From Lunularia cruciata (lineage: Eukaryota; Streptophyta; Marchantiopsida; Lunulariales; Lunulariaceae): a stretch of DNA of 64,000 nucleotides. Both the position numbers and the translations under genes were made by a program. Shown here one piece after another: positions 4,838 through 58,535 of the stretch. Every line of letters starts with the position of its first letter. The stretch's first letter is position 1. The notes beneath the pieces were generated by a model. That model saw only the letters and a program-made list of their open reading frames with translations. It had not been told where the DNA came from and ran no database searches. The stretch is taken from NCBI GenBank assembly GCA_948567375.1, contig OX419758.1, positions 3,787,001 through 3,851,000 of the forward strand, in the 5' to 3' direction.

Positions 4838-6290
4838 TGGTACATTCTCTTCCCCTATTGCTCCCATGCCATACTACCTCATTTGGTTATCTCCCTCCTC
4901 GTCCTTCCTATCATAGCTTGAGAGCTTTTGAGAGAAGTATCATGGGAGTCTTTGGTGATATTATTGGACTAGGGACATTTGAGTGTATGATGGGGGATTT
5001 GGCATATAGACATATGGCTTTGTCGTTCTCGTGTGGACGGGTTGGCTTGCTATCCATGGAGGAGACTGCACTTATAATATTTTTGTGTAGTTGTGCTCTC
5101 TTGGCACCCTTGCTTTCTTCTCATTTTGTAGTTGTTGATAGGCCAGGTTTGGAGATTTACTTGACATAGGTGGAAAGGGGATCATTTTCTCTCCAAATGT
5201 TATTGCATCAAACGAGAGATAGTCTATCCCCACGGGCACAAGAAGACTTTACATCTTTTGCTTCACTATAGTCAGATTGAAGTAGAGGTTTACAATTTTT
5301 CTTGATGGAGGGACAATGTGAACATAAACTACATTCTCTTTGAGTTGACTTGTCCATTCCTCATAATACTAGAGCATGTCTTTGCTCTTGCTCTAGCAAG
5401 GATGCAAGCCCTTGGATCCTAGCTCGATTGTGCATTAGGGCATTCCGACTCCCACCGGCTACTTTCTCTACGGCGATGAGGTTTCGCTTAGGTTTGGTCC
5501 ACCCATCTATATCTTCATCATTCACTTGTGAGTGTGGTTCTACCCTAGATGCAGCAACGGTCCATATGACACGATGTCCTTTGGAGGATAGAGAATAGCT
5601 ACCCATGGTGCTATTAGGGACAAAATGTTTGCTATGGCACAAGAGAGTGTATACTTGGTACTTGGCTTGGAGGGAGCACTTGTATGCTTTGCAAATGACA
5701 CATGTCAGGGCGGATTTATACTTGGTCTGAGATGAATAAGTGACAATAGCAGATGTCATAGTTACAAACCGTACACGAGAAACAATTTCGGAAGGAGTGA
5801 TTACCCATCCCCTTGGATGTGCAACGAGTGTAACAGCAGGTCGCAAGGTCTCCAAGTATAGGGGCATGTAGTGAGGTCACCTCTTTGTTCCTCTAGCCTT
5901 GGAGCTAAATGGAGCAATGGACACGACGTTGGACACATTTGTCGGGTAGTGCGAGGGAGCTTATCATGTTAGGCAACATGAGGTATCACCTTCACTCTCA
6001 TGCTTTGGGACATATTTTAGACCGTGCGTGTCCATTGCTCTATAGAGGGCAATGGCTGGTGTAATTCATAGGAGAGCAATCAAACTAGGTGATGTTTCTT
6101 TTGATGCTCTAGTTGTTTGTCAACCACCTAACTTGGATAGCTAGGATATCTTAGGTGCAATAGTGGAGATTTCTCATATAGTCTCTATTGGTGCTTAGTC
6201 CCATTTTACCTTTTTCATCTCTCTCTTGTGCGGTTTGATGGGGTCTCTTCCCAATCCTTCATTTTTTCTACGGGTTCGCCCTTGTACTTA
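4838..6290 (+). mobile_element. Non-LTR retroelement copy A, 5'-truncated and decayed
   Basis: The plus strand encodes the thumb region just after the RT domain (RIMRVFGDI, FECMMGDLA, GRVGLLSMEET) at about 4870-5170. It continues at 5370-5600 with a block ending in a cysteine/histidine cluster (CECGSTLDAATVH, then C). A degraded tail follows, with HVRADLYLV and TIADVIVTN, then PLALELNGAMD. This order matches RT elements ending in a zinc motif plus a restriction-like endonuclease. Frameshifts and stops break it, so it is inactive. The RT core is absent. The 3' tail shared by the family lies at about 6223-6290. Domain naming is from motif recognition; the endonuclease call is inference. Confidence 0.75.
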
Positions 6291-9200: not shown

Positions 9201-10309
9201 TTGCATTTCCTAGTGCTTGTAATGCTTTTTCCTCGGGGTATGCTATTTGGCTTTTGGCCACTTCCCAACTAGACTAGAATGAAGTGCAAGTAAAGTACCG
9301 GTACTGTACTGATGGTTAGTCTGAAGAAGTCTACGGCGTTTTGAACAGGTTGATGAGATCCGGAAAGCAATCAAAGCAATGACTTTCGGCAAAGTCGGAT
9401 CCAGGTCGAAACCACTAACGGCAAAGGAACTTGAGTTCAATCGGGTGTCAGTTTGGTACAAAACCGTTTCATTTGACCTTGTTGTCAAACCGGTCCACTT
9501 GGTTTTCGATGAGTGAGTTTGGGCAATTCCAGGTGGTTTGGAAATGTTAGAGTTGGATTCTGTTTTGATTCGACTTTACCTTGCAACAAACAACGTGACG
9601 TCCTATCACTCCTAGTTAGTCATGCAGACCACGAAACCAAAACGAAATAGAGCCAATAGAGCCAAACGCTCTTCGAATTCGATTTCGCTGAACGACAGGA
9701 GCTCATCATACACTCAAGATGATTCGTCTTAAAAGGTCTAGACATATCTCAGTATGGATATTTCCAATTCGATCCAGTTTCGCAGTGGACTCCTTTGTTT
9801 CGAGTCTTCTCACTGACATCGAATCCTACATAATGTAGCTATACCTTATCGGACCTAGTTAACGGAATCAGTAGTCTTTAGTAAAAGATTTTCCTAGTGC
9901 CGTTTCTGTTCTCAAGCCCAGATTAGTGTGACCCAAATATTCCGATATGCAAGCTTCTTAGAAGGTCGACTTATGTCATCTTTGAACCCTATTGTCCCGG
10001 GAAACTAGCCATGACAAATCAGTTTCTTTCTAGTGAAGGAAATCTCGTGAAGGAAATCGTTCCCTTGTGATCTGTCCACATCCGGTTTCTACATTCCATG
10101 CCGTTTGAATAAAAGTTATGTTGTAACTTTTTGGGTTGCTCTTGTGAGTGTAAATTACTCGTAAGGTTCTAGCTGTGAGATGATACAATTGCACGGTTGA
10201 TAGGAGCACTAATACCGCTATATGTTTCTGACAGGTTCGTGTTTCTATCCATCCAATCTGGAACTGATTGCCCAATCCACATTGTAGATACAAATACGAG
10301 TAATCTATA
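6291..10309. other. Non-genic stretch with one tandem duplication
   Basis: About 4 kb without a supportable gene. Open frames are short and without motifs; a lysine/arginine-rich minus-strand frame at 9017-9268 has no recognisable domain. The only clear structure is the duplication at 6843-7190, listed separately. Segments at 7680-7980 are AT-rich. Confidence 0.5.
6843..7190. repeat. Imperfect tandem duplication, period about 194 bp
   Basis: The sequence beginning tcataactctcctt at 6844 recurs at 7038. Both copies then run through cagccag-gct, a shared cgcccgtggagaagaaga segment and a gcgaagaag/gtgaagaag segment to gtaagatg. Copies differ by substitutions and a short insertion, so the duplication is not recent. 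No protein frame is kept across both copies. Confidence 0.7.
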
Positions 10310-10889
10310 GAATTTCTTTCATTCAAATCTATTATAGAATTCTGCATACTGACGCTCTTTATTTTCTGGTTAGAATTAGCGAATTTCTTTCATCCAAATG
10401 TATTACAGAATTCTGCATACTGACGATCTTTATTTTCTGGTTGGAATTAACGAATTTCTTTCATTCAAATCTATTACAGAAATCTGCATACTGACGATAT
10501 TTATTTTCTGGTTGGACTTTCATTGACGATATTTATTTTATGGTTGGAATTAACGAATTTCTTTCATTCAAACCTATTACAGAATTCTGCATACTTGAAG
10601 ATCTTTATTTTCTAGTTGGAAGTAATGCGAACTTGGGTGGATTTAACACACCGGACTGACCGATCTTTTATTTCGCGGTTGGAATTAACTCTCAGGATTG
10701 CAAGTCCTCTTGCCACTTTCGAAATCTTTACTCATGGCTTTTCGAAGGGAGAAATAGACTTCAATAATACATTATCCCTAATTTATATCTATATAGATTA
10801 GGGAAGATGTATCACTTATGGATTAATGTACACTCCACATAAATATTGCACTGTGGAACACTGTTTATGGTTATTTCTACACTCCTCCC
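10310..10889 (-). repeat. 3' LTR region of Copia-1 with 71-bp tandem repeats
   Basis: Units of 71 bp start at 10310, 10381 and 10452, followed by a partial unit near 10520 and a further unit at 10554. Each carries gaatttctttcat, then ctgcatact, then ctttattttctggttggaattaac. Toward 10889 the minus strand begins TGTAGAAATAACC directly after a purine-rich tract (CTTGGGGAGGAG), as expected for the start of a 3' LTR. A single diverged piece of the repeat unit reappears at 14524-14550 on the other side of the element, supporting an LTR origin. A hairpin-like inverted repeat lies at 10775-10804. The exact outer LTR end is not defined. Confidence 0.6.
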
Positions 10890-14570: not shown

Positions 14571-16724
14571 CCCATAACATAAGAGGAAAAATGGGGCTAT
14601 GCTCCCATTTTCAAGAATTAAAGAGATAGTATCTCAGAATAAATATGGGATCTTTGAATTTCTTTTATGGTAGGTGAAGCCGGGGTACACATTTTGGGTA
14701 CGTGGTAAACGTTACATTCGAGGACATTCTCAACAGAGCGAAAAACGCAGACTTTACGTTGAAGTGTATATGGGAAATGATAAACATTAATTAAGGGTAA
14801 TTCAAGGCCTCTTACTTCCACCGTCCATTACTCACAAAACCAAATGTAATAATTATATTTATTTACGAAATCGTAAAAAAGCACCATAGTGCTTATCTAT
14901 GGACGTTTCAGGAATGGCAGCCGGATGGCCTTGTGTGACATGCTAGTGTTTCTCAGGACCGGTCTCACTGCAGTAATTTGCCAACTGAGACACCCTAGTG
15001 CATCAAGCTGTTCGCAACCGCAATAGAGTTTCACCACCAAGCTTGGGAAACGCTCGCAACTTTCCTCGATTAGCTGCTGTTGAAGCATTATGCGATTTGT
15101 CTCGTATTTCTATATGGAGACATCGATTTATAAGATTGGAAATACACACTACATTGAGATCCTGATAAACAAATCCATATTTTATACTGCAGGTTTTTAC
15201 TCGCATGGAAGTTAGAAAATTTTCGTCTTAGATGAAGAACAGACTGGGTCGGTTGAGGAAATCTGATATGTACCTCAATCCCTTATTCGAACATAAAGTG
15301 TTTCAACCACTTCGTTCTCTTTCCAACCACATTGTCATTGAGACCTGATAGCAATAAAATCCAGTGTCCCATTCTGTCTCTTCCTTTCCTCTTACTTTCT
15401 ACGACTCCCTTCTCCCGTCGTTTGTAGTTGGAGTTATCTGCACACGTCTACCAACAACGAATTTGGTGATTGTAAAAGTTCTCCAAGATCATAGCGTGCG
15501 CAATTAAGGTAGTAATCACGAACAAGAAGAGACCGAGTACCATCTAACACTTCAGTTAAGACAATGAGAACGGTTGTTGTCAATTTGCTATTATTACTTC
15601 GCATTCCATGGCAAGCACCTGGAGGGGCCGCTTCCGAGTCATAGATATTTGTAGCACGGACACGACAAGCGCACCACATCATCATTTCTGATGTACTTCC
15701 CACCGTGAGCCAAGAATTAGTGTGACCCTCAAGGTTCTAAGTCCGTTTCCCAGATGGGGATGATACCTCTAATCTGAATTTGAGCCAAGAATTAGTGTGA
15801 CCTACGAGTTTCTTGACGTCATGATGTTAGGAGTTTGATCATTACATGTCAGTTATCTAAATTGAACGTTCCCATAATCTGACTAGGAAAAGGTAGTTAA
15901 ATCTGACTTGAACGTTCCTTTAATCTGACTGTTAACAAGTGAGAAAAGAAGGCGACCGTTTGTGATAACAAGAAGATGGAAGAGCCCATCAGGCCGTACA
16001 AGGAAAAGGCATTGGGTCAAATGTTAACAAGTGCATTTGATGTGGCGAAAGCATTTTCAATGGGAGACCGCACTTTTCACACCGGCTGTTGACCAAGGTC
16101 CTCATGAACTGTAATAATTACTCCACCTCCTGATTCACGATTCGGTGGCTATGTAATTCGGTGTCTTCATTGACTTTCTTGTCAGGCCCTCAGTGATGTT
16201 ACAGTGTTTTCATTTACCCATCATTCCTTTTTCATAACATAAGAACGGACCAATTGTGGTGTGGGTGCCTTTTGTCCGTTTCTTGTCATAGCTCTTCATG
16301 GCAGTTCGCATTGCTGCACCAGTGCATAACTAGACCTCAGTTATCGTGTGCGCGTCACCTCAAAGCTCTGCATCGCTGAACGTAAGCTTCGAAATTCTTC
16401 ACGGTACATAGATTGTGTTTCCATCATGAAAGTGAACCTTCGTAGCGGCCTGCATCGAGTTGATTGAGTGTACTTCTGTCAGTTTCTTTGCTGATCCTTG
16501 AAAGTATTCAAGCGCACCTCCAGAATTTGGGTGACGGCTGACGACGGTATGTTTTGAGGATAGAGTACTCGAGAGGGCGGATGAGTGCTTGACGCCGCTC
16601 GTTCATTCCAGAGCCCATGTTCTCAGAGTAAGTAGAGCTTGGAAGGTGAGCTGATATTGCAACCGAATCCCTTAGCTCCGGGACATAGACTCCTTGTAGA
16701 GCAGAACTTCGAGCAGCAGCCGCG
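14571..16724. other. Non-genic stretch upstream of the hydrolase
   Basis: No gene is supported. A solo tail of the non-LTR family lies at 15949-16012. A short phrase, gagccaagaattagtgtgacc, occurs at about 15706-15724 and again at 15782-15802, indicating a small local duplication. The final few hundred bases should contain the promoter and leader of the plus-strand hydrolase gene. Confidence 0.45.
15949..16012 (-). mobile_element. Solo 3' tail of the non-LTR family
   Basis: On the minus strand this reads CTTGTACGGCCTGATGGG, a CTCTTCCATCTTCTTG segment, then CGGTCGCCTTC, matching the 3' ends of copies A and B. No RT body adjoins it. It represents a strongly 5'-truncated insertion or an independent short element using the same tail. 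Confidence 0.6.
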
Positions 16725-18522
16725 ATGGGGTGCCTCAACTTCAGCTTGATTAGCTATAAAGACAAGGCAATGCATAAGGGGTTCCAAAATGCAGGACTAG
16801 AATCTCGCAAAATCGAGATCCTCAATGGTTCCACAGTCCATTGCTGGGTACCCAAGGGCTATACATCTCCTCCTCCTGCTGATAAACCAGTGGTGATGCT
16901 TCTTCATGGATTCGGAGCTAACGCGGTGTGGCAATGGGATGCGAATGTTAGAGCACTCATCGAGCACTTCACTCTTATCATTCCTGATCTCATTTTCTTT
17001 GGACAGTCCACAACCGAAAGTCTCAAACGTTCTGAGTCTTTCCAGGCAGAAAGTATGTGGATGTGCTTAACCTCGCTGGGGATTGAGAAATTCAGCTTAG
17101 TGGGAACAAGTTACGGTGGCTTTGTATCTTACAGGATAGCCCAATCTCATCCGGAAGCAGTTCACAAGATCATCTTGTCAAACTCAGCGATTTTGATGAC
17201 GCCGGAGGATGATGTGGCGCTAGCCAAAAGAGGTGGCGCTGAGAACATGCCGGACCTGCTCCTTCCTACCACCGTGGGTGCAGTGAGCAGATTGACAAAC
17301 CTCGTCTTCAAGAAGAATCCATTCGGGTGGAGTCCCACTTTTCTCCTCCGAGACTATATTAACGTATGTAAATCTCAACGTCCAGTGCCTCCTTTCGAGA
17401 TCCAACTCACCGCGAAACCTTCTTTGAGCGTATCAAACAAGTCACGTAGGGGTAATTTTGCGTTGGCGAGTCCAGTCAATTTTTTAGCTATTCACGCACA
17501 GAAAGGATTACCGATTGATCTTCACATTTGGCACCAAACTTCCGGCACTGTGAATAGTATGGCCTCAGTACGCTGCTGGTTTCACTAGCAGTCGGTGATG
17601 TCTAAAGCGATGGGCTCATACATAAAATATAGTTCTTTCCAATAGTGTACAGGATCGTCCCTACGGGTTCTTCTACTAGGCTAAACAACTTACGGCACTT
17701 ATGTGAGAATTGATGGTGCTGCAGGTGCTTTACTCTCCCAATCGTGAGAGGAAAGTAGAGATGCTGGACGCACTCGTATTCGGCAAAGAAAACGCACCAT
17801 CTCTTATGACGAAAGTTGATAAGGTGAGCCTCTCGTGGATCCGCAGTTCCAGCCTTATACTGCATCGTTTCTGAGTGGTGGAACACATCTGAACTGCATT
17901 ATCTCGTCTGAAGACACCCGCAATTGATTATTCAATTCCCTTATCGTCGGGACATTACAAAGTAAGCCTCCCATAACCATGTTCTGAGTGTCCGATTATA
18001 CTTGAATGATTATTGGCTTGTTGTTTATTGCATCTATGTCGTATCTCGCTGTTTTCAGATGTCAAATACTCGCTTGTGTATAGGATGTCCTTATTGTGTG
18101 GGGTGAGGACGACCAAGTATTCCTGCCAGAGCAAGCTGAACGCATCAACAAGTGAGTTAAACTTGAACCTTTTCTTATAATCTGCGCTGACTGCAATTGC
18201 AAGTTAACTTTGACTGCGAGTATCGAATCCAATGAATTGCATTGTGATCGTTAAATCACTTCTCGCCAGTTGTGTCGCAGATGACTGTCACTCTACGTAA
18301 ATCCGAAGCATAATTTTAACCAGTCCCTTATGCAGTGTTTTCTTCTAGCTCTGGTTATGGTGTTCGTTCTGCTCAGTGATCCCTGTTCTTGGATGTGATT
18401 TGTGCAGCTACCTGGGAGAGCGTGCGGAGTTGGTGATACTGAAGGATTCAGGCCATGCGACACAATTAGAGCAAGCTGTGAAGTGGAACCAGCTAGCAAT
18501 AGACTTTCTTCTGAAAAAATAG
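16725..18522 (+). CDS. Alpha/beta-hydrolase-fold protein, four exons
   Basis: Exons: 16725-17363, 17725-17823, 18084-18151, 18408-18522. They give 921 nt, 306 residues plus stop, with all junctions in frame and normal GT-AG borders (GTATGT, GTGAGC, GTGAGT donors). The fold's catalytic set is complete: oxyanion-hole HGFG at 61-64, nucleophile elbow GTSYGG with Ser129, acid in WGEDDQVF (Asp256 likely) and His285 in SGHATQLE. The SESFQAE segment before the elbow and the VLIVWG strand are typical of a plant serine-hydrolase family related to monoacylglycerol lipase and ABHD6-like proteins. The substrate is not predictable. A helical lid runs about 165-213. No clear signal peptide. The open frame reads on into intron 1 to 17588, which would lack the acid and histidine, so the spliced form is preferred. 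Confidence 0.9.
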
Positions 18523-26318: not shown

Positions 26319-28055
26319 TTATATTGTAGCCGGGTCCACTTCATGCCTCTTACGCACAGCATCTCGAAGGAGAGCCGAAGGTTTGCAGCCCTTCGAAACC
26401 ATTTGTTCTAGAAGTGCTTCCGCCTTTTCTCTTAAACCGACTTTCACTAGCCCGGCGATAAGAGCAGAATAAGTAATTTCGTTGGGATCACAGTTATACT
26501 TCTCCATTTCATCCAAAACCTTGCAAGCCTCATCCCATTTTCCTGCCTTCACTAGCCCTGCTATGAGAGCACTGTATGTAACAACATCTGGAGGACACCC
26601 GCTTGCTCTCATCTCTGCTAACAGAACCTGAGCCTGCTCCCAGTCACCCGCCTTTCCTAGGCTTGAAACAAAGGGCGTAAATACAAACAAGTTTGGCGTC
26701 AAACCGTCTTGTTTCATTCTACCAAAAAGATCCCACGCCCGATCTAGCATTCCCACTTTGACAAAATTGTTGATAAGAGTACCGTATATAAAAGAATTTG
26801 GAGTACAACCAGCTAGCCTCATTTCATCTAAGAGGTTATATATGTCCTCAAACTGGCCAGCCTTCGCAAGGCCGTCGATTAGACAACTATATGTTATCAA
26901 ATTAGGTAGACAACCCCGCGCTTTCATTTTTTCAAAAAGCGTCCAGGCTTCTCTCAATCGCCTGTCTTTGACAAGCCCATGAATAAGAGCACTATAGGTG
27001 ACTACATTGGGCTCGCACCTCTTGGTTTCCATCTCATCGAGAACCTTAAGAGCATCTGCTACCCTCCCGACCCTGATGAATCCATTTATGAGAGCAGAGT
27101 ACGTCACAACATTTGGGGAACAGCCATGCCTCTCCATGAGATTGAAATGCTCCAAAGCTTCCTGCATTGCACCAACTTGACAATACCCATCGATCATATA
27201 GGTGTGGATAGTCACTCCAGGACTATATCCATCGGCTAAGGACTCGTCAATCACCTGCCTGAGAATATCCAACTTCCTGTTCTTGAAGTCCCTGTGACTC
27301 ATCAACTTATGAAGCATAACCTTGTAAGTCCGGCCTGAGTGCTGAACACCCCGCCTCTCCTTCACCCAATTGAAAAACTGGAACGCACGGTTAACATTGG
27401 CCTGACGCCTAATGACCTCACAAACTAGAAATGTGTTGAACTGCACCGCATCCTGTTCAAGGAGTTGCTCCCATCCTCCGCTATTGAGTACATCAACAAC
27501 GTGCTTCACAATTGGGGCGGCAGCCATAGGCTCTTCAGCTGCTGGAGAGCTCTCTTGCATCTGTTTCAAGGAACTTTCAGCCTGTGAAGGACTACTGTCC
27601 GAGTTCTCCTCTCCATAATCTCTGCTGGTATGAAATCCACTTGCGCATCTACGAAGAGGCTGAGCTGTGAAGAAAACTTCCTGCTGAAGACTAGAGAAAC
27701 CTCCACTGCTCAATGACCCGAGACTTCCCTTCCTTACGAGAATTTCGCGACTTTTTCTCCTAACAGGTTCCGAGCAAGTGTCAAACCTGTCGCCAGATAC
27801 TGAACGCAGTTTTTCAGCTGTTCTCTCCACAAGATCAGCTGTTGGCGTACCAATGCTACATATTTCTCCACCTCCCCCATTCTCTAATTCTACATCGCCA
27901 GAGTACCACCTCTGACAAGTGCTTCCTGAAACCCAGTTTGCACCACCCGTGCAGAGGGCACAAACATTTTTGCACAGACATTTCCACGAAATGCTTGATT
28001 GTAAGATCTGGTGCTTGTGAAGAAGAGGCGCCATGCTGCACTTTGCAGAAAACAA
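26319..28055 (-). CDS. P-class pentatricopeptide repeat protein
   Basis: An intact intronless frame of 578 residues. Eight consecutive canonical 35-residue PPR motifs span 281-560 (most opening with a VVTYSALI-like helix), preceded by two degenerate motifs at about 204-280 and followed by an 18-residue tail. No E, DYW or SMR domain follows, so it is P-class. PPR proteins bind organellar RNA in single-stranded form, one base per motif, and act in processing, stability or translation. The N-terminus is rich in Ser, Cys, Lys and Arg with few acidic residues up to about 50, consistent with an organelle transit peptide; mitochondrion or plastid is undecided. Residues 5 and 35 of the eight motifs are T-N, S-N, S-N, S-N, G-N, T-D, S-N, S-S. 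The first ATG is used; an internal Met8 is an alternative. Confidence 0.93.
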   Translation of the reverse strand: MFSAKCSMAPLLHKHQILQSSISWKCLCKNVCALCTGGANWVSGSTCQRWYSGDVELENGGGGEICSIGTPTADLVERTAEKLRSVSGDRFDTCSEPVRRKSREILVRKGSLGSLSSGGFSSLQQEVFFTAQPLRRCASGFHTSRDYGEENSDSSPSQAESSLKQMQESSPAAEEPMAAAPIVKHVVDVLNSGGWEQLLEQDAVQFNTFLVCEVIRRQANVNRAFQFFNWVKERRGVQHSGRTYKVMLHKLMSHRDFKNRKLDILRQVIDESLADGYSPGVTIHTYMIDGYCQVGAMQEALEHFNLMERHGCSPNVVTYSALINGFIRVGRVADALKVLDEMETKRCEPNVVTYSALIHGLVKDRRLREAWTLFEKMKARGCLPNLITYSCLIDGLAKAGQFEDIYNLLDEMRLAGCTPNSFIYGTLINNFVKVGMLDRAWDLFGRMKQDGLTPNLFVFTPFVSSLGKAGDWEQAQVLLAEMRASGCPPDVVTYSALIAGLVKAGKWDEACKVLDEMEKYNCDPNEITYSALIAGLVKVGLREKAEALLEQMVSKGCKPSALLRDAVRKRHEVDPATI

Positions 28056-28847
28056 TACTCGATTAAAACGATACCTTTCTTATGTCAATCAATTCTACTG
28101 TAACTCAAGTCCAATACGGTCGAGAAACAAAAAAGTCCGGTAACCGAAGTTCCCGACATGGTCTGACATACCACATGATGTCCCAATCGCATGATAATGA
28201 CTACTCAAGTACATACCAAGTTACATTGTCCACAAACGGACTACGATTACTCGATTCCATAAAGACCTGGAGATAAGTCTTAGGAGGACAGATCACCCGT
28301 GCAGATCACAGAAAGAGCACACATCACGCAACACAATATAATCCAGAAATTCAAACACATCTAAACTTGATTCCAACTTCGAAATAATTCCTTCATCCAT
28401 CTAAATCATCTCTCCTCATCTTTTGATTACGCTTCACACCCTCAATCGCTCACTCTGCTTCTCTAGGGTTTCCTACTTTGACGCGACTCCGTAAAATTGT
28501 CCGCTGCTTCACAAAACTTACTGCCAGAAACACAATTCAGCGAGACAAACCCAAACCATCCTAAAAGAACTCCAGATTCGTCATCAATATCCTGTCGAAA
28601 ATCTCTAAATTCATTGCTCGCCAATCCTCCGAGTCACAAATTCGAGCAAGGACGAGCAGGATCGGATCGAATTCTGCAGCACCGCTCACCTGGACTGTTC
28701 AACACTAGGGTTGCGAAAATAGCTCGATAATCAGCTGTCTGGCTGCATCCATTGCGCTTCGAGAACCAATCTTCCGAAACTCTGACCTCTGGTCTCTCCC
28801 TTTCCTGAACACCTTCAATGTCCTTTCAATAGCTAAACCCCTGTTGG
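28056..28847. other. Upstream region of the PPR gene
   Basis: No coding feature supported. This should carry the PPR promoter and leader, read leftward. A minus-strand frame at 28705-28938 overlaps the tandem duplication and has no motif. Confidence 0.4.
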
Positions 28848-29077
28848 TCGCAGTTGTCCCTCGAAGCCCTCGGGGTCTCTTCTCTCGGCTGGCTCCCGAG
28901 TTCACCGTCACCGCAAGTATATACTTATGTTGTAACAACCACGCTGCTGGGGAAGAGATCCGTCGCAGTTGTCCCTCGAAGCCCTCGGGGTCCGTTCTCT
29001 CGGCTGGCTCCCGAGTTCACCGTCACCGCAAGTATGTACTTATGTTGTAACAACGTCGGTGCTGGGGAAGAGATCCG
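28848..29077. repeat. Near-identical tandem duplication, period 115 bp
   Basis: The unit starting tcgcagttgtccctcgaag at 28848 is repeated from 28963 to about 29077 with only a handful of differences (tctctt versus tccgtt, atata versus atgta, accacgc versus gtcggt). GC content is higher than in surrounding DNA. High identity suggests a fairly recent duplication. It lies about 0.8 kb upstream of the PPR start. Confidence 0.88.
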
Positions 29078-29475: not shown

Positions 29476-32400
29476 AAGGCGACCGCGTAGGGAAAACGAA
29501 GGATGGGAAGACCCCATCAAGCTCTACAAGGGAGAGACAAAAAAGGTAACATGGGGCTAAGTCCCAATAGAGTCTATAAGAGAAATCTGCTCTATCACAC
29601 CTAAGAAATCGAGCTAAGCAAATAGTCCGGTCTATACACTTTTGGCACTTCCGAATAAACATCACCTAATGTATTACTTTCCTATGGATTGCACCCACCA
29701 TTGCCCTTTGTAGAGCAATGGACACACGCTGTCTAAAATATGCTACAAAGTATGAGAGTGAGAGTGGTACTCCCGGCACCTAACATGAAAAGCTCTCGTG
29801 CACTCCTTGACAAATGTGTCAAATGCCGTGTCCATCGCTCCATATAACTCTAGAGGAACAAAGAGGTGACCTCGCTGCATGCCCCTTTACTTGGAGACCT
29901 TACGACCTACTGTTGCACTCGCTGCCCATCTAGGAGAATGTGTAATCACTCCCTCCAAAACTGTATCCCGTGTAGGGTCCGTAACAACGACATTTACTAT
30001 TGTCATCTGATCATCTCGTACCAAGTATAAGTCTGCCCTAACATGTGTCATCTACAAAGCATACAAATGATCCCTCCAAGTATCCACGCTCTCGTGCCAT
30101 AGCAAACAATATGTCCCTAATGGCATCATGGGTAGCTATCCTTTGTCCTCCAAAAGGACGCCGTGTGGACCGTTGCTACATCTAGTGTAGAACCACACTC
30201 ACAAGTGAGTAATGAAGATGCAGATGGGTGAACCAAACTTAGGCGAAACCTCATTGCTGTAGAAAAAGTAGCTGGTGCAAGTCAAAATGCCCTAATGCAC
30301 AATCGAGCTAGAATCCAAGAGCTTGCACCCTTGCAGGAGCAAGAGCAAAGACATGCTCTAGTAGCCTGAGGAATGGCCGAGTCAACTAAGAGAGAATGTA
30401 GCATATGCTCACACTGTCACTCCATCAAGGAAGACTATAAACCTCTAGTCCAATTTGATGATAGTGAAGCAAAAGGTGGAAAATCTTCTTGTGCCCATGG
30501 GGATAGACTATCTCTCGTCTACCGCAATAACATTTAGAGAGAAAAGGATCCTCCCTCCACCTCTATCACATAACTCTCCAAAATCGGACTATCAACAACC
30601 ACAAAATGAGAGGAAAGTAGGGGTACCAAGAGAGCCCAACTACCCAAAAATGTTATAGGTGTTGTCTCCTCCATAGATAGCAAGCCAATCCCACCACATG
30701 AGATTGGTAGAGCCGTTTGTTTACGTGCCAAATCCCTGTAATACCAAGAGTTAGCCATATAATCTAGATGTGAAATTTGGTTTGATAACATCTAGAATGA
30801 TGTTATACATGATGGTCAAAATAGATCAGATAGAAGTATCACCAAAAGAGTACTTCTACTAATAGGGCAAAAACCAAAATAGACTTGAGAACCTTAGAAC
30901 CAATAGCTAGACATATGATTTAAAGGTGAAAATTGGTTTGGTAACATTTGGAAGGATGTTACACATGATGGACTAAACAGACCAGAAAGAGGTATCACCA
31001 AAAGGAGACTTCTACTAATAGAGTAGGAACCAAAATATGCTTGAAATCTTTGAAGACAATTTCAGAGGCCTAAACAGATGAATTAGGCCTTGAAAATTTG
31101 CAAATCCCCCCCCCTATAGAGGAAAGGTTGGCCTTCCTTCCCCCCTACTTTGTCTTATCGACATTTTTCCAACGGTACCTTACTCACGTGATTCTGAGAT
31201 TCCTACATGAAGATGCCCCAAAAGATTCCCTCTGGGAGAAGCTTGTTTGACCAACCAAATAGGACCTAGACCAGACATGTCACCCACCCAAGTAAGTAAT
31301 CCAAGGGTGGAGCTTGCTGACATGTCACCTATCTATGTCCCTAATCCTATGGTGGAGTTTCATTGGAGGAGATCCTCTTTGCCTATATAATAAAGAGAAG
31401 GTGCTCCTTTGGGGCATCGAATGTTTGAGAGTGTAATCTGTGTTTTCTCTCTTCTCTTGTCCTCGGAGTATTACAATCCCCTATCACACACTCAAATGTA
31501 CATGGTCCAATAATATCACCAAAGACTCTCATAATCCTCCTATCAAATGCTCTCAGACGTGATACGAAGGATGGTGAGGGAGGAACTGTACGGATGAGGT
31601 AAGATAGTAGACTAACAATACTAGAGAAGAGTATACCAAATGCCACCTGCAAATCTCCTAGTAATGGAAGGTCATCCACATGGAGGTCATCCTCTACAAG
31701 GGCAGCGTCTAAGAAGCATGTGACAAAATCCTCCAATCCTATTGGCACTCCAAGAACACAAAGTCCATATGTGGATGTGATACACCCCTCTGGAAGCTCA
31801 AGGTAGGGAGGGATACCTAAAGGGGACCATGTCCTGCACTTTGACACCTTGACTCTCAAGCCTACTAGATGTAGCTTGGTAGTCAAGTAGTCAAAGGCTT
31901 GCCTAATCTGATCTATAGGGCCTACGATGTGTGTATCATTTGCCAAGGAGGGAAATACACAACCTGGCATGGCCAAAGTAGTAGATAGGAGAGCTCTAAA
32001 GTGAGCCATGGAAAATAAGGGTCCTCCCAAAGGATCTCCCTGATGTGTACCAACAGTTGACTCCAAGATGGTGACTCACTCCTATGGACCACCATGTTGG
32101 TAGTCAATGGAAGCAAGAGAGCCATAAATAGACCGCACAAAAGGAATGAGACTTGCCAAGGATCCACCAGCCTCCCTAAACTCTCTAAAGATGGATGCCC
32201 GTGAGATGCTATTAAAAGCATTCTCAACATCCACCTGTAGGACAACCCACTTCGGATGGATCTCTAAGAGTGCTCTAATGCCTAGAGATATATCCTCACA
32301 TCCTCCAAGTGTAGCTACTCCAAATTGATGTGGACTAAAGTGCTATCAAAATTAAGAACAATGTTGAAGGACAATGGTATGACTGACCAAACACAAAAGG

Positions 32401-33450: not shown

Positions 33451-35801
33451 GCTAGCACAAGAATAATGATAGTAACACATGCTACTCCTCTCTATATCTT
33501 CCCATATCTGCAAAACCACAACCCCTCATATCCCAACTCACATAAGAAAACAATCTCTCCAAACCATGAAAACTATAAACTCTCATAACTTTCAATTTCC
33601 ATCTCCAAAATTTTCAAACTAAATTCCCATGGAACTTAATCATGAAACCAAGAGATTGGAAATGAAAATTCCTGACCCATCACTCTCAATGTGTAATGAT
33701 CACTCTAAACCCTAAAAATGCTAAAATCCTCATAACTTTCTACTCCATTCTCCATAGTCTTCAATCTAGGTACCAACGGAACCGAAATTGAAAAATGAAG
33801 AGAATAGACTATTCATTCAAGTGCTATATGCTAGAGAGCCCTCAAGAATTATAAAAATATGTCTTCTCACATCTCTCTCTCTCCTCTCTCGGCTCCCCAC
33901 TCTCCCGCAGCTGTTCGGAGGAAGGGGAGTCAATCTTTGAAGGGGAGTTATCTCTAATCATACGATATTTCAACCTTGCCTTGGAGTTTATTTCCTCAAG
34001 TAAATAAAGAATAGAGGTCATTTCCTATATGAATCTTTTTGAATATTTTTCTAAGGTTTTCCCAAACACATATAAGGAATATAATAGTAAATAGTAATAT
34101 TTTCATCAATATCAGTAAGAATGGGTAAAGAAATATAACAATAAATTATAGAATATCAATAACAATAGAAACAAAAATGATCTTAGCAGACCAAATCATA
34201 GAGTATATTGATACTAAATGTAGAGGGTTAAGCTTAGCTGACTAGCTTAATATCTTAGTTTCTAATATCTTTTTTTGCTGAAATTATTAATTTTTAAATC
34301 AAATGTACTGATGTAAGTGCATTAATTACTAATATCAATTTTTTGTCACTATTGTATGGCAAGTGCATACCACTAAGAGTTAGAAATAACGTAAGAAAAT
34401 AAAATAGATAGAAATAGATAGGAACAGATATTTAAAGTAAATAAAATAATTTGTATTTTATTTTTTAAATATTCTATACTAATTAATTTCAAAAAAGAGG
34501 TTCATGCAACCTTGTTTCCTCCATAAGTTGCTCCAATCAATACTAGAATATGGGGTTTTTGCATTTATGCATATCAAAAACAATCAACCAACAAAATTTT
34601 GATATATTGATCTAGCATGTTAAACAAAATCTTTGTCCAATTAGCTATGTTAACTCTCCTTCTATTGTTATTCCTATAAGTTTTGTTCTTTATATAATAG
34701 ATTTATATCTAAATTAGTTGATTCCATTAAATAATTTTCCTTATATATTATGAACAATAAATATATTCTTCTCTTCCTAGTCACTACAAGATTATGTGAA
34801 TGTTAGGATTAAATCATTAACGTAAATTGTTTTACATATCTTGAAATTGTATCTTACGTTTATTGAATAAGCTTGCTTACATACTTATTATACTTATTAG
34901 ATATTAGTATAAATATTTTGACTAAAGAGATTATTAAAGTTACTTTTTTATAATGCAATGTTATATTAAATACTTCTTTATTGAACTCACAAAACAAATT
35001 TTCTAAGTATTATATAAGAAGGAATATACATTGAATAAATTATTTTGATAAAATTATTTTTTCTTTCATCTATTCTAAGACATTTGAGACATCTCAAATA
35101 ATAATAAGTTGTGTGACAAATAATGGATCAAGAAAATGATAGGACTAAGAATGAATACCAAAAACTCCATATGATCTCTTAAATATACTATTATGGAATT
35201 TCATAAATTATTTTTAGATGGATATGAAGTAAAAAATTCCATATGCTCTCATGAATATACTTCAATAGAATTTAATATGTTGTTTTTAGATTTAGTTGAA
35301 TAATATGTTGTTTTTAGATTTAGTTGAAGTATCAAAAACTCCATATACTCTCTTAACGATAGCGTAATGAATTTTCATATATTCCTTTTAGATGGATGTG
35401 AAAATCTGAAGTGGTATCTAATCTCATTGAAAATATTACTTTCAAATGATAGTTGGTGTTTTGTTGAATTTTGATTCCTTATTTATAATACATGCTTCAA
35501 AGAAGACACTTAAATCATTTAAAGCCTATATGAAAATTTTAGATTATGTCTTATTGGCATTCTAAAATATTTTCTGATGGAGATAATATTTAGCTTGATT
35601 GAAAACATATTCAATTTTTATAAAGTAATAATAATTTTCTATTTATAATTTTTTTTAGATAATATACATCTTGATTGACATATACTACTACCTTGTACAT
35701 CATTCATTTAAAGTTTACAACTTATTTTGGCATAAGAACTGACCTCATGTTTTACCTCTAAATTACACAAAATTGCTTGTCTTACTTAATAAAGATGATA
35801 A
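33451..35801. other. AT-rich non-genic stretch
   Basis: No gene. From about 33950 the sequence is strongly AT-rich with many short stop-interrupted frames. A loose repeat lies at 35156-35400, listed separately. The first few hundred bases may hold the degraded 5' end of copy B. Confidence 0.5.
35156..35400. repeat. Degenerate tandem repeats in AT-rich DNA
   Basis: A unit containing aaaactccatatg-tctc, then tttagatgga-atga occurs about three times (starting near 35160, 35232 and 35335). Within it, aatatgttgtttttagattt plus agttga is duplicated side by side at about 35274-35328. Confidence 0.6.
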
Positions 35802-36525
35802 CATATTGTAACACTCCGAGGACAAGAGAAGAGAGAAAACACAGATTGCACACTCAAACATTCGATGCCCCAAGGGAGCACCTTCTCTTTATTATATAGA
35901 CAAAGAGGATCTCCTCCAAGGAAGCTCCACCATAAGATTAGGGACACAGATAGGTGACATGTCAGCAAGCTCCTCCCTTGGATTACTTACTTGGATGGGT
36001 GACCTGTCTGGTCTAGGTCCTATCTGGTTGGTCAAACAAGCTTTGACCAGAGGGAATCTTTTAGGGAATCTTTTAGGGAATCTTGGAAAGCTCTCGACGA
36101 GACAAACCAAGGGGAGGGAAGGCCAGCCTTTCCTCTATTGGAGGGGGGGGGGAACCACACATTTTCGAGGCCTAATTCATCCGTTTAGGCCTCCGAAATT
36201 GCCTTCAAAGATTTCAGGCATATTTCGGTTCCTACTCTATTAGAGAAGTCCCCTTTTGGTGATACCTCTTTCTGATCTGTTTAGTCCATCATGTGTAAAA
36301 TTCTTCCAGATGTTACCAAACCAATTCTCACCTTTAAATCATATGTCTAGCTATTGGTTCTAAGGTTCTCAAGTCTATTTCGGTTTCTGCCCTATTAGTA
36401 GAAGTATTCTTTTGGTGATACTTCTATCTGATCCATTTTGACCATCATGTATAACATCATTCTAGATGTTACCAAACCGAATTTCACATCTAGATCATAT
36501 GGCTAACCCTTGGTATTACACATAT
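35802..36525 (-). mobile_element. Second solo LTR of the same family, inverted
   Basis: The LTR spans 35807-36520 (714 bp). It matches the reverse complement of the LTR at 30737-31475 along its whole length. Target-site duplication CATAT flanks it (35802-35806 and 36521-36525). A 12-bp unit (agggaatctttt) is repeated about 2.8 times at 36051-36084 where the other copy has one. No internal retrotransposon sequence adjoins either copy. Confidence 0.92.
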
Positions 36526-47469: not shown

Positions 47470-48370
47470 AACTAGAACTCTCTACAGAACAATAGACACC
47501 TGCTATCTAAAATATATTATGAAATATGAGAGTGACAGTAGTATCCTTGACATCTAATATGATATGCTCTTACGTTCACTTACAAATATGTCAAATGCCA
47601 TATCAATAGCTCCATATTTCCAAGGTTAGAACAAAGAAGTGATCCCACTGCATACTTCTATAATTGGGGATCTTATCTCTTGCTGCCATCCAAGAGAATG
47701 AGTATCACTCCTTCCAAAATATGTATCATGTGTAATGTTTGTAAATACAACATCCACTATTATCATTTGACCATCTCGGACCAAGTGTAGGTCTGCTTTG
47801 ACCCACATCATCTACAAAACATACCAATACTCCCTCCAAGTAAGTTATACACTCATTGGTACCATAGCACAAGAACCACTATATCCCCGATAACATAATA
47901 TGTTGCTATCCTTTGTCCTCTAAAACCGTATCATATGGACCATTGCTACATCTAGTGTAGAACCACACTCATAAGTAAATAATGAAAATGCAAGTGGGTG
48001 GACAAAACATAAGGAGAACCCCATTGTGTTAGAGACAATAGTTGGTATGAGTCAAAATACCCTAATGCATAGGTGAGCTAGGCTCCAAGAGCAAAACTCT
48101 ACACCAAGGCAGAAACAAAGAATATACCCTAGAATGCATCATTTAAGGATGTGATGATGTGTCAACTAAGAGAGAATGTACCATGTGCTGAAATTATTGC
48201 TCCATTAAGAAAGACTATAAGCATGTGGTCCAATCCAAAGGTAAGGAAGTAAAGAATTGAAGGTTATTTAATGCCTTGTGAGATAGACTCTCTATCTCTA
48301 GTATGCCACAATAACACCTAAAGAGAAAATGATCCCTTTTTCATCTTGGTCACGGATGTCTCCAATTCGA
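47470..48370 (-). mobile_element. Non-LTR retroelement copy C, fragment
   Basis: This segment is homologous to 29700-30600 of copy B in the same orientation: shared phrases include gacacctgctatctaaaata/gacacacgctgtctaaaata, gtagaaccacactca-aagt and agactataa. It covers the C-terminal zinc/endonuclease-like part only. It is the most diverged of the three copies and richer in A and T, so probably the oldest. The family tail is not clearly recognisable at its 3' end. Confidence 0.72.
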
Positions 48371-55117: not shown

Positions 55118-58100
55118 ATGCCGGGAAGAATAGCTCTGCTCGCTCTGAGTGCCATTTTGGTACTCAGCTGCTGTACCCACACGGTTCGTGTTGCTGGTCA
55201 AGGAATTGAGGGCGTCGATAACGTAATTACTCAATGGAATGTCGTGACGCAGCGGGTATTCGATTCTTACCGTTGTGCGGCTATTTCTGCACACTCTTGG
55301 CTAATTTTGTTCAGTAAGCTTTAGACTGAGTTGATTTTCCCCAGGAGAACTAGCCCAGTTCTTACTTATCTGCATTCTTGTTGCTACTTCTCTGCACAGC
55401 GATGCAATTGCGTTCCCTAGTTTCATCCCAACACCTCGTAGTTCCCCTTTCCCTGCCAATCACTGTGCAAGCTAACGTAACGTACGAAACGTTCAGTGCA
55501 AATTTGCAAGGTAGTGCTGGCCTGTTGTTACTCGCAGAAGTGGTCTCTGTTTGTAGTAGGAGGTGTTCGTTGACGAGCTTGGAAATTTACTTCCATGTGG
55601 GATTGGTCGATGTTTTCAGATTATCCGACTGCTAGCGCTTCCCAATCAAATTGCGGGCCGAGTGTACCTTGAAGTCCATCTTCCCCAGTATTTGGCCCTC
55701 CAATCTGCGTATAAGAAGAGACCTTCGGTCGCTCATCCAGAAGCAGCTGCCCACTATGCTGCCCACTTTGTTTTATCCGAGTAAGTGTAGGTCAGTGTCA
55801 TGGAATGAATCTCCATTGGAATTGAAACCGATACCAGTCGCTGAACTTTTTTGCGTTGGAGTTTACAGGTTGAGTGTGTGGACCTGAGATTGGAAATTAA
55901 CAGGCCTTTCGAAATTTTTGCGCAGGCTCTTTCCTTGGCAACAATCCCCAATTTTTGACACCTTTATCGCCTCGAAAATCAGCGCGTTGGGGCTATCCGA
56001 GAGGGAAGACAGAGAGGCCGAGAGGACCGGCGTCTCAGCCGCTGCTAAATTTTTGAAATCAAGGTAAATACCGTTATCTTACCTTTGGGTCCGCACGAGA
56101 CAGTGTTTTCTAGCCAACGTGTACTATAATAACTGGTGGATTGCTTCTATTTGCACCGTGTATCAACAAATCCGTCAATTTTACAGTTTTTATTCACTAT
56201 ACACTTGCAGTCTTGAGAAGGAACACAGCAGTCGAAACCCGGAAATAATTATGACCGTTGCTCCAAAAGGACCTCCAGTTTCGAGGGGAACTTGCCAGAA
56301 CCTCAGTGTTCTTGATTGATCCTAACCCTGCAAACTCTCGATGGAACAGGCAGAACGATGGCAGCCAACGATGGGCCAACTTCAAACCAGCTCCGGCTAA
56401 TGGTCCAACCGGAGCTTATCAGTTCACGCCCAATCAGACGTTTGCTCTTTACCCACAACTAGCAACTACGCGACCCGAGGTGATCAGGGCTGCCTCGGAT
56501 TTTGACACATTTGGAGGTCCCCCAGCTATCCCCAGCGCCAAATACAACTCGGATTACCAAACACTCGCTACCATCGGAAATGCTGCATCCCCACTTCAGA
56601 CTGATTTCCACAAGCAGACTGCAAGATTTTGGGAAGATGGCAGCAGTATGCTACTCAACTTACCAGTTCCCTTGAAATCGAATTGCTAAATGTTGTGTCA
56701 TGGCAGCACGATTGATTGTCTAGCAGTAGCAAATGCAACTTTTCACGCAATGTGAATAATCGATTTTTGTTGACTGCGAGGGATGGTACTTTGATCCTTT
56801 CTTTCCCCACGCAGACACGTCCGGTATCGTTGGCCATTTCTTCAACATGAGTCTGGCAGTAGCTGGTCCCCAGATCTCCCTCAAGGACACAGCCAAGCTT
56901 TTTGCCAAGCTCTCCGTCTCTCACTTCGACGGCGCTATCGCTGGGTGGTTCCAGAAGTACAAGTACCTCTTCTGGCGTCCAATCACTGCTCTCAGGTCTC
57001 TCTTCATTCCAATCTTTTCATGTCATTGGCGAAACTTCAATTTTGAAAGTCCATCCTATTCCGTGTAATTCATCAAAACCCTTTGAGCTCATACCAGTTC
57101 AGTTCAACACTTTCGATGTTAGCGGAGGTACGATGTACTGCAGATGGCAGGAGGCCACGGATCAAGCCCAAGACTTTAGGAAGATGAGGGTTCAGCTGGC
57201 TCCAATGTGGTCTAACTGGTGGTGTGATCTCGATCTTTTGTGCATTGCAGACAAGGAGAAGAAACTCACGGGCCTCTCCCGACTTACGAGACCTACCTGC
57301 GCACACCTGCACATCCCGAGTACCCAAGCACGCACTCCGTTAACGCTGGAGCGTGGGCTGCGATCGTGGCCAAAACTCTCGGCATTTCAACGACTACCGA
57401 AATCAAACCATTCTCGGTGGCAACGGAGGGGTACTTCCTACCCAACAGAAGTTACAAGACCCTCGAGGCACCTAGCGTCGAAGTTTACCTCAGCAGGTAC
57501 GACGACTCAAATATCCTAGGCATCACTGCTAAGATCTCTGTTGCTTCAAGTTCACGCAATCTTAGTGTGACACAACGGATTGACGTCCTATTACCTCATC
57601 CAAGGGTCTGAAAATTTCGGAAGTATCTGATTGCAATGTCTTGGTAGTATGTGGAGGTAAGGAATACATACTCTCCTAAGAGTTTTGGAGTTCAAAAGTT
57701 CGATGCTTATCCGGTCAAACATGCGGGGCCCTCCTGCTACATCTCATGAATTGGAAAGTCATGTCTTATTCGCATCGTCCACTGTGTGACTAAGTGAAGG
57801 GATTGATGAGTCCATGACATGTGGACACGCCGTTCACCACATCCAATTTGTTAACATCAAAATATGCTCAATCACTCATGCAACGTGTTTAGGAGAACTA
57901 TGTCTATGTAAACAGGATACAGTTATGGTTCCTTTAACGATAGTACGCGTCGTCGGCTCCAATTTGGTTTAGACATTAGTAAAAACGATTGCGGACATAC
58001 TCGATATGAGTCACGACTTGCATGTCCTAATAGTTCATGCCTAATCTACAATTGTCTCCTCCCTACGTTCTCCCGGCTATGGCCCGCAGATCAGTATCCT

Positions 58101-58535
58101 AGAAGCTGATCCGTGACCTTGGCATTGGAGGATTCCTGTGACTGGATCCGGATGCTACAGAAACTGACGAATTATGCTCTTCTGCAGAGTTTATGGAGGC
58201 GTCCACTTCCCCAAGTCAGGCAAAGATGGTTTACAATTAGGAGTAAATGTGAGTCCCCCCCGGGGGTCCACACACATTATTCCTTCTCTCAAGACTCTCT
58301 GCCTGCTCTCCTTCTGTCTCAATTTCCGTCAAATAGGGTTTACATGATCGAATTGCTGTGTTTGCCAGGAGTTGTCCGAGAGAAAAGTAGTCTGTCGGTT
58401 GTCGAAGCATTTTTCCGCGTTCAATTAAGTTTATTCTGTTCATTTTGGAGATTCACTGATCAGTTGTTCACACCTGTTTTTCAGGTTGGAGAATACGTCT
58501 ATGACCATTTTGTAGAGGTTTACGGGGATTTGTAG
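55118..58535 (+). CDS. Vanadium-dependent haloperoxidase-like protein (PAP2 superfamily), eight exons
   Basis: Exons: 55118-55255, 55620-55780, 55926-56063, 56350-56645, 56815-56995, 57251-57496, 58188-58248, 58485-58535. They total 1272 nt, 423 residues plus stop, with all seven junctions in frame. A hydrophobic signal peptide covers about residues 4-24, so the protein is probably secreted or enters the endomembrane system. All five vanadate ligands of the Curvularia-type enzyme can be placed: Lys292 and Arg299 (KX6RP, ending FWRP), His333 (PSTHS, normally PSGHS), Arg387 and His393 (RVYGGVHF). FWEDG before the core and VGEYVYDHF at the end fit the family. Such enzymes oxidise halide with peroxide; relatives act as phosphatases, so activity is not certain. 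At 423 residues it is shorter than fungal chloroperoxidase (about 600). A possible AATAAA signal is at 58665-58670. Confidence 0.9.

What the first reader, a model, noticed from the sequence alone, without database searches (positions are those of the whole stretch)
55118..58535. Complete vanadium-haloperoxidase-like gene in a plant-like genome
Eight exons can be joined in frame to give a protein with every vanadate ligand (Lys292, Arg299, His333, Arg387, His393) and a signal peptide. Vanadium haloperoxidases are well known from algae, fungi and bacteria; as far as I know they are uncommon in land plants. The gene has ordinary spliceosomal introns, so if acquired by transfer it is not recent. 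Transfer itself is inference.
Basis: partly seen in the sequence, partly recalled or inferred. Interest (0 to 1): 0.7.

Follow-up and report, generated by a model that had tools for sequence, protein, structure and literature searches.

The report
Secreted haloperoxidase-type gene in a bryophyte-like genome
A plant-like genome carries an intact, intron-containing gene for a probably secreted enzyme of the bacterial vanadium-haloperoxidase type, which would use vanadate and hydrogen peroxide to oxidise halide ions; the gene looks real, but its activity and its origin are not shown.

Summary
Eight exons at exactly 55118-58535 (+) join through seven GT-AG introns into a 423-aa protein with K292, R299, H333, R387, H393 and a hydrophobic N-terminus. 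No intron can be read through. A profile from 83 bacterial homologues aligns nearly end to end (272 bits); 100 resampled segments gave no hit of 15 bits or more. By sequence the protein belongs with vanadium haloperoxidases, nearest in solved structures to a bacterial one (4cit), then fungal chloroperoxidase; PAP2 phosphatases are far weaker. The ligands alone do not separate haloperoxidase from phosphatase. The best 80 bacterial relatives found are 27-34% identical, and the tree leaves the protein on a long, unplaced branch: no recent donor seen. Transfer is untested, because no eukaryotic sequences were available. Genome size (566 Mb), contigs of 60-77 Mb and a PPR neighbour suggest a land plant, perhaps a liverwort (inference). 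The idea is not new in print: one paper lists a plant 'haloperoxidase' as microbe-derived, another cites haloperoxidases of watermelon and lettuce. New member of a known kind; most likely a secreted bromide/iodide peroxidase.

The parts
55118..55255 (+). exon 1 (residues 1-46): start codon, hydrophobic signal-peptide-like N-terminus, start of N-terminal helical domain
   Evidence: W40-N41 align with bacterial homologues; no single-exon profile hit
55620..55780 (+). exon 2: N-terminal helical domain
   Evidence: aligned in the joined protein; alone E 4.7
55926..56063 (+). exon 3: N-terminal helical domain
   Evidence: profile 78-126, alone E 0.62
56350..56645 (+). exon 4: stretch between the two helical domains; sequon N174; codon of N245 is split by intron 4
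   Evidence: (profile 125-222, 54.0 bits)
56815..56995 (+). exon 5: C-terminal PAP2-like bundle with W289, K292 and R299 (KYKYLFWRP)
   Evidence: profile 221-284, 51.6 bits; one search aligns W289/K292/R299 with V-CPO W350/K353/R360
57251..57496 (+). exon 6: HPEYPSTHS with H326, S331, T332, H333; also R371
   Evidence: profile 290-365, 44.2 bits; one search aligns H333 with V-CPO H404
58188..58248 (+). exon 7: SRVYGGVHF with H393; codon of R387 is split by intron 6
   Evidence: profile 364-387, 20.0 bits
58485..58535 (+). exon 8 (residues 408-423): C-terminus and stop codon TAG
   Evidence: residues 408-418 aligned in the joined protein

Best explanation
A functional nuclear gene for a secreted vanadium-dependent haloperoxidase of the bacterial type. 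Shown by sequence: intact spliced frame, complete vanadate-ligand set, match over both helical domains, hydrophobic N-terminus, four N-glycosylation sequons, no cysteine after residue 19. Inferred: the protein is exported to the cell wall; vanadate is held by H393, with K292, R299, R387 and S331 binding its oxygens and H333 acting as acid-base; hydrogen peroxide forms a peroxovanadate that oxidises bromide or iodide (H326 sits where V-CPO has F397; a His there is typical of bromoperoxidases, recalled) to hypohalous acid, used in defence, in halogenating phenolics or in removing peroxide. Origin: old acquisition from bacteria or deep eukaryotic inheritance; undecided.
For: Gene model and ligands; bacterial-profile match of 271.6 bits with resampling control. 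Single-sequence PDB search up to E 10: 13 distinct sequences, namely 4cit, two other vanadium haloperoxidases, seven V-CPO variants, NapH3 (a haloperoxidase by recall) and two bromoperoxidases; no phosphatase. Profile search (19 rows, this protein one of them): 4cit 1.6e-69, V-CPO variants 4.5e-35 to 6.1e-33, most bromoperoxidases 5e-8 to 7e-6, phosphatases 0.0023 to 0.013. W350, K353, R360, S402, H404 of V-CPO align with W289, K292, R299, S331, H333. K292, R299, R387, H393 in 83 of 83 and H333 in 82 of 83 bacterial homologues. The six PAP2 places found in the own genome (L087 and L088 are neighbours) do not match the haloperoxidase profile within their 3-kb loci.
Against: No activity, vanadium or transcript data. 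VCPO_2nd Pfam score is under its cut-off (24.4 against 27); VCPO_N, matched by 6 of the 19 rows, does not match this protein. No NCBIfam model matches, though none of the 18 bacterial rows matches one either. In the profile search one bromoperoxidase (5aa6, 0.0058) ranks below a lipid phosphatase (0.0023), so phosphatases are not wholly separate. T332 replaces the Gly of PSGH and is found in 0 of 83 homologues (Gly 60, Ala 20, Gln 2, Ser 1). The N-terminal domain is diverged and shortened. Very long branch (2.41) could mean changed function.
Confidence: 0.6

Rival explanations
1. A secreted acid phosphatase of the same fold: the vanadate site is a phosphate site and the haloperoxidase label is only ancestry.
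For: Ligand motifs are common to both, and V-CPO is reported to show phosphatase activity (PMC4859513, passages); PAP2 is the only Pfam model over its cut-off.
Against: Phosphatases rank far below most haloperoxidases and are absent from the single-sequence search; two-domain length. The Asp of the R-G-H-D motif is Ser here, but this is weak: the motif is described as shared by haloperoxidases and phosphatases, and homologues have Ser 33, Ala 29, Asp 19, Gly 1, Glu 1 of 83.
Confidence: 0.22
2. A vanadate peroxidase that no longer makes free hypohalous acid but catalyses a specific oxidation or cyclisation in the plant's specialised metabolism.
For: Long branch and T332; NapH3 and NapH1 (substrate-specific enzymes by recall) are relatives at 4.5e-25 and 1.2e-17 in the profile search.
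Against: Nothing specific points to a substrate; of ten ORFs of the window scanned only a PPR protein and an alpha/beta hydrolase were named, so a gene cluster is neither seen nor excluded.
Confidence: 0.12
3. A decaying or silent copy.
For: No transcript evidence; diverged N-terminal domain; some weak splice sites.
Against: 423 codons open across eight exons; of 34 columns examined, the nine that are invariant in 83 homologues are all kept.
Confidence: 0.06

Closest known systems
Bacterial vanadium haloperoxidase of PDB 4cit/4usz (Zobellia galactanivorans iodoperoxidase, by recall)
   Same: Residues 167-414 align (2.1e-15 single sequence; 1.6e-69 with profile A2); same SR-YGG-H motif and ligand set
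   Different: Low identity; Phe where this has H326, TSGHS where this has PSTHS; eukaryotic introns and probable secretion through the plant pathway
Bacterial vanadium haloperoxidase homologues (planctomycetes, cyanobacteria, verrucomicrobia, acidobacteria, proteobacteria and others)
   Same: Nearly end-to-end alignment, 27-34% identity, ligand columns invariant but for one H333
   Different: No bacterial lineage is close; this protein has an end branch of 2.41; T332 in none of 83
Fungal vanadium chloroperoxidase (1idq and variants; Curvularia inaequalis by recall)
   Same: W350, K353, R360, S402, H404 aligned with identical residues
   Different: F397 is H326, G403 is T332; PF22778 below cut-off; 609 against 423 aa
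Vanadium bromoperoxidases (1qi9, 1up8, 1qhb and others; algal by recall)
   Same: A short C-terminal stretch (1qi9 0.079; 5.1e-8 to 0.0058 with the profile)
   Different: Only part of the C-terminal bundle matches; not the nearest group
PAP2 acid and lipid phosphatases (Pfam PF01569), including this genome's own
   Same: PAP2 core and ligand pattern
   Different: Weak; six own-genome PAP2 places are elsewhere and do not match the profile
Plant genes called 'acid phosphatase/vanadium-dependent haloperoxidase related' (rice/barley, PMC3928125; watermelon Cla001590, PMC7888440)
   Same: Name only
   Different: No sequence was seen; I recall that this plant label often belongs to an unrelated small family, not tested

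Membership tests
Vanadium-dependent haloperoxidase | Complete vanadate ligand set (Lys, Arg, His, Arg, His) | tested here: met
Vanadium-dependent haloperoxidase | Full-length two-bundle architecture, not only the PAP2 core | tested here: met
   profile positions 7-396 of 403 (by sequence; no structure predicted)
Vanadium-dependent haloperoxidase | Sequence nearer to known haloperoxidases than to phosphatases | tested here: met
   one of the bromoperoxidases ranks below one lipid phosphatase
Vanadium-dependent haloperoxidase | Vanadate binding and peroxide-dependent halide oxidation | not testable with these tools
   needs purified protein
Fungal V-CPO (Pfam PF22778 VCPO_2nd) | Score over the curated cut-off | tested here: not met
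   24.4 against 27 bits; at E 0.001, 11 of the 19 rows of A2, this protein among them, match the model
PAP2 superfamily (PF01569) | Score over the curated cut-off | tested here: met
   28.9 against 27.2 bits
PAP2-type acid phosphatase | Asp four residues after the second His of the site | tested here: not met
   S397; weak test, since the motif is also given for haloperoxidases (PMC4859513)
Recently transferred bacterial gene | Close bacterial relative and nesting in a bacterial clade | tested here: not met
   best identity 34%, no supported set of up to half of the rows holds it; the scan used two peptide patterns and kept 80 of 492 relatives, so a closer one may have been missed
Anciently transferred bacterial gene | Nesting of plant sequences within bacterial ones in a tree with all eukaryotic homologues | not tested
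   no eukaryotic sequence collection available

The most novel reading that the evidence does not exclude
A land plant lineage, perhaps liverworts, keeps an old bacterial-type vanadium haloperoxidase with the complete vanadate site as a secreted enzyme that makes reactive halogen in the cell wall. It would give a land plant a defined gene for vanadium-dependent halide oxidation and could account for halogenated bryophyte metabolites (their existence is recalled).
Probability: 0.3. Interest if true: 0.65.

Novelty: new member of a known kind. Interest (0 to 1): 0.37.

Why it matters
If active, it would tie vanadium-dependent halide oxidation in a land plant to a defined gene with a complete site, and give a test of whether bryophyte halogenated compounds are made by the plant itself.

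Tried and rejected
Paralogue search in the own genome: the family search (PF01569) was answered and found six PAP2 places, not this gene (probably because its PAP2 part is split over three exons and only the best candidates are scored), so it could miss intron-split paralogues too; the protein search did not complete. In 164 kb around the gene no second copy was seen: the protein itself finds only its own exons up to E 0.1, and the bacterial profile gives one further hit below its inclusion threshold (E 0.069, 10.9 bits, minus strand, C7:3748337-3748528), not followed up. Viral contigs: no stretch matched the patterns. Tree to name a donor: uninformative, long branch, quick method. Rfam and tRNA scans of the window: nothing. 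Literature: ten searches answered in an open-licence library; some searches listed all their papers, the others only the first 25 of 1,921, 20 of 33, 20 of 335, 20 of 312, 12 of 560 and 25 of 1,289. I opened 12 papers, by passages or one section each; three of the five papers were not opened. PMC12890914 (searched for peroxidase, phosphatase, PAP2, vanadium) and PMC12448838 (haloperoxidase, peroxidase, vanadium), both on plant gene transfer, showed no mention of such an enzyme. The table in which PMC9667741 names its plant haloperoxidase could not be read.

Full report
What is there. Eight exons between 55118 and 58535 on the + strand join through seven GT-AG introns of 145 to 691 bases into 423 codons and a stop. 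Each intron carries in-frame stops when read through and six of seven shift the frame. Exons are richer in G+C (0.52) than the introns (0.42 to 0.45). The N-terminus is hydrophobic (Kyte-Doolittle up to 2.7 over 11 residues), there are four N-glycosylation sequons (174, 245, 255, 370), and the only two cysteines (18, 19) lie in the presumed signal peptide. No signal-peptide program was run, so secretion is inferred.

Is it more than chance. A profile built from 83 bacterial homologues (84 extracted from loci L001-L084; L037 dropped as shorter than 330 aa) matches the joined protein over positions 7-396 of 403 with 271.6 bits. On the unjoined window the same profile finds exons 4, 5, 6 and 7 in order at 54.0, 51.6, 44.2 and 20.0 bits; exons 3 and 2 reach only E 0.62 and 4.7, exons 1 and 8 are not listed, and two other places have E 4.8 and 9.1. 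In 100 first-order Markov resamplings of the 6-kb segment no hit reached 15 bits. The bacterial set was found with this protein as part of the query, so the profile is not fully independent; Pfam PAP2 (28.9 bits, cut-off 27.2) and the PDB search (4cit, 2.1e-15) are.

What it is. The single protein finds 13 distinct PDB sequences up to E 10: 4cit, two further vanadium haloperoxidases, seven variants of the fungal chloroperoxidase, NapH3 and two bromoperoxidases. With a 19-row profile (this protein plus 18 bacterial rows) 34 sequences are listed up to E 10: 4cit at 1.6e-69, chloroperoxidase variants at 4.5e-35 to 6.1e-33, 9ptr, 9l8x and the NapH enzymes at 1.6e-28 to 1.2e-17, bromoperoxidases at 5.1e-8 to 6.8e-6 with one at 0.0058, three phosphatase sequences at 0.0023, 0.0075 and 0.013, and nine unrelated ones at 0.18 or worse. 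The residue alignment pairs W289, K292, R299, S331 and H333 with W350, K353, R360, S402 and H404 of fungal V-CPO; H326 stands at F397 and T332 at G403. R387 and H393 are paired through the 4cit alignment and the bacterial rows. Across the 83 bacterial homologues K292, R299, R387 and H393 are invariant and H333 is kept in 82; T332 occurs in none (Gly 60, Ala 20, Gln 2, Ser 1); at S397, the place of the Asp in the R-G-H-D motif, homologues have Ser 33, Ala 29, Asp 19, Gly 1, Glu 1. That motif is given as common to haloperoxidases and acid phosphatases (PMC4859513, passages), so its loss says little about which of the two this is. The VCPO_2nd model of Pfam stays under its cut-off; of the 19 rows 15 match PAP2, 11 VCPO_2nd, 6 VCPO_N (not this protein) and 3 DUF6851 at E 0.001; no row matches NCBIfam. 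So it is a haloperoxidase-type protein of the bacterial kind, not a member of the fungal V-CPO family at Pfam's cut-off. The six PAP2 places that the family search found in the own genome lie on other contigs and do not match the haloperoxidase profile within their roughly 3-kb loci.

Where it lives. The window is C7:3787001-3851000 of a 565,766,749-base assembly in 74 contigs; the four contigs seen measure 60.2, 64.5, 69.2 and 76.8 Mb. Of ten long ORFs scanned, out of 228 of at least 65 aa, one is a pentatricopeptide-repeat protein (26322-28079, -) and one an alpha/beta hydrolase (16689-17585, +); eight gave no family. Contamination is unlikely: the gene lies inside a 69-Mb contig and has spliceosomal introns. 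No second copy was seen in the 164 kb around it (one sub-threshold profile hit, E 0.069, not followed up); elsewhere unknown, because the protein search of the genome did not complete.

Origin. Two peptide patterns matched 531 stretches in the prokaryote collection, 492 of which encode relatives; the best 80 were kept, 27 to 34% identical, in nine phylum-level groups by their record titles. In the plasmid collection 86 records match, all under 60% identity; the 40 listed are at 33% or less. In the tree of 84 rows (quick method, SH-aLRT only) this protein has an end branch of 2.41 and no supported set of up to half of the rows holds it; nearest by path are cyanobacterial rows at 2.9 to 3.0, which carries no weight. 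So no recent bacterial donor was seen, with the limit that the scan was by pattern and capped. It does not show transfer, because no eukaryotic homologues could be included.

How it most likely works. Inferred from the family: vanadate in the site, peroxide bound to it, halide oxidised to hypohalous acid, outside the cell. His326 suggests bromide or iodide rather than chloride (recalled comparison with bromoperoxidases; homologues have Phe 43, His 35, other 5 of 83 there). Phosphatase activity is the main rival.

What is known. V-HPO are described as best studied from algae, fungi and bacteria (PMC4859513, passages); brown algal ones are argued to come from bacteria (PMC11765636, abstract and passages). 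For land plants the name is already in use: PMC9667741 (section 12 and passages) lists a haloperoxidase within 81 gene entries for organic-pollutant resistance that plants are said to have gained from microbes, in a set of fourteen genomes that includes Physcomitrella; which species has it I could not see. PMC7888440 (passages) calls the watermelon gene Cla001590 a V-dependent haloperoxidase of undefined function and cites work on haloperoxidase activity in lettuce (title in its reference list). PMC3928125 (passage) has a rice/barley gene labelled 'acid phosphatase/vanadium-dependent haloperoxidase related'. PMC8774696 (passage) says that a haloperoxidase was proposed, and thinks it unlikely, for 4-chlorotryptophan in pea. 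I saw no sequence of any of these and cannot say whether they are relatives. Among the papers listed no title or abstract reports a characterised enzyme of this kind from a bryophyte; most of those lists were cut, and the library holds open-licence papers only. I recall, without a call, database annotations of PAP2/haloperoxidase-like genes in bryophytes and lycophytes; hence 'new member of a known kind' and a moderate interest score.

Noticed in passing
window 26322-28079 (-): A single open frame of 586 aa encodes a pentatricopeptide-repeat protein with eight PPR_2 stretches, the best sign that the window is from a land plant.
   Followed up: partly
window 16689-17585 (+): Alpha/beta hydrolase ORF of 299 aa (Abhydrolase_1, 6.5e-21), possibly the main exon of a plant gene.
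   Followed up: no
window 4919-5896, 29850-31555, 35796-36520 and 47874-48296: Diverged repeat copies: five inverted pairs with arms of 81 to 571 nt, 84-95% alike, and two direct pairs 71-76% alike, consistent with an interspersed transposable element.
   Followed up: no
window 34001-36000: Strongly AT-rich stretch (GC 0.254; the surrounding 164 kb have 0.417).
   Followed up: no
window 10279-10595 and 28847-29076: Short tandem duplications: four copies of 72 nt (65-94% alike) and two of 115 nt (95%).
   Followed up: no
L085 and L086 (G000:C8): Two uninterrupted PAP2-domain ORFs of the same genome (4.6e-18 and 1.8e-16) that do not match the haloperoxidase profile.
   Followed up: partly
G000:C7:3748337-3748528 (-), in L099: Sub-threshold hit of the bacterial haloperoxidase profile (E 0.069, 10.9 bits), probably chance, about 95 kb upstream of the gene.
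   Followed up: no
L002 (Rhizobium etli plasmid pRetNXC12e) and L001 (Nostoc plasmid pNsp_g): The haloperoxidase-like domain lies inside an 8.7-kb gene annotated as Ig-like domain protein, and in a gene annotated as CARDB domain protein.
   Followed up: no
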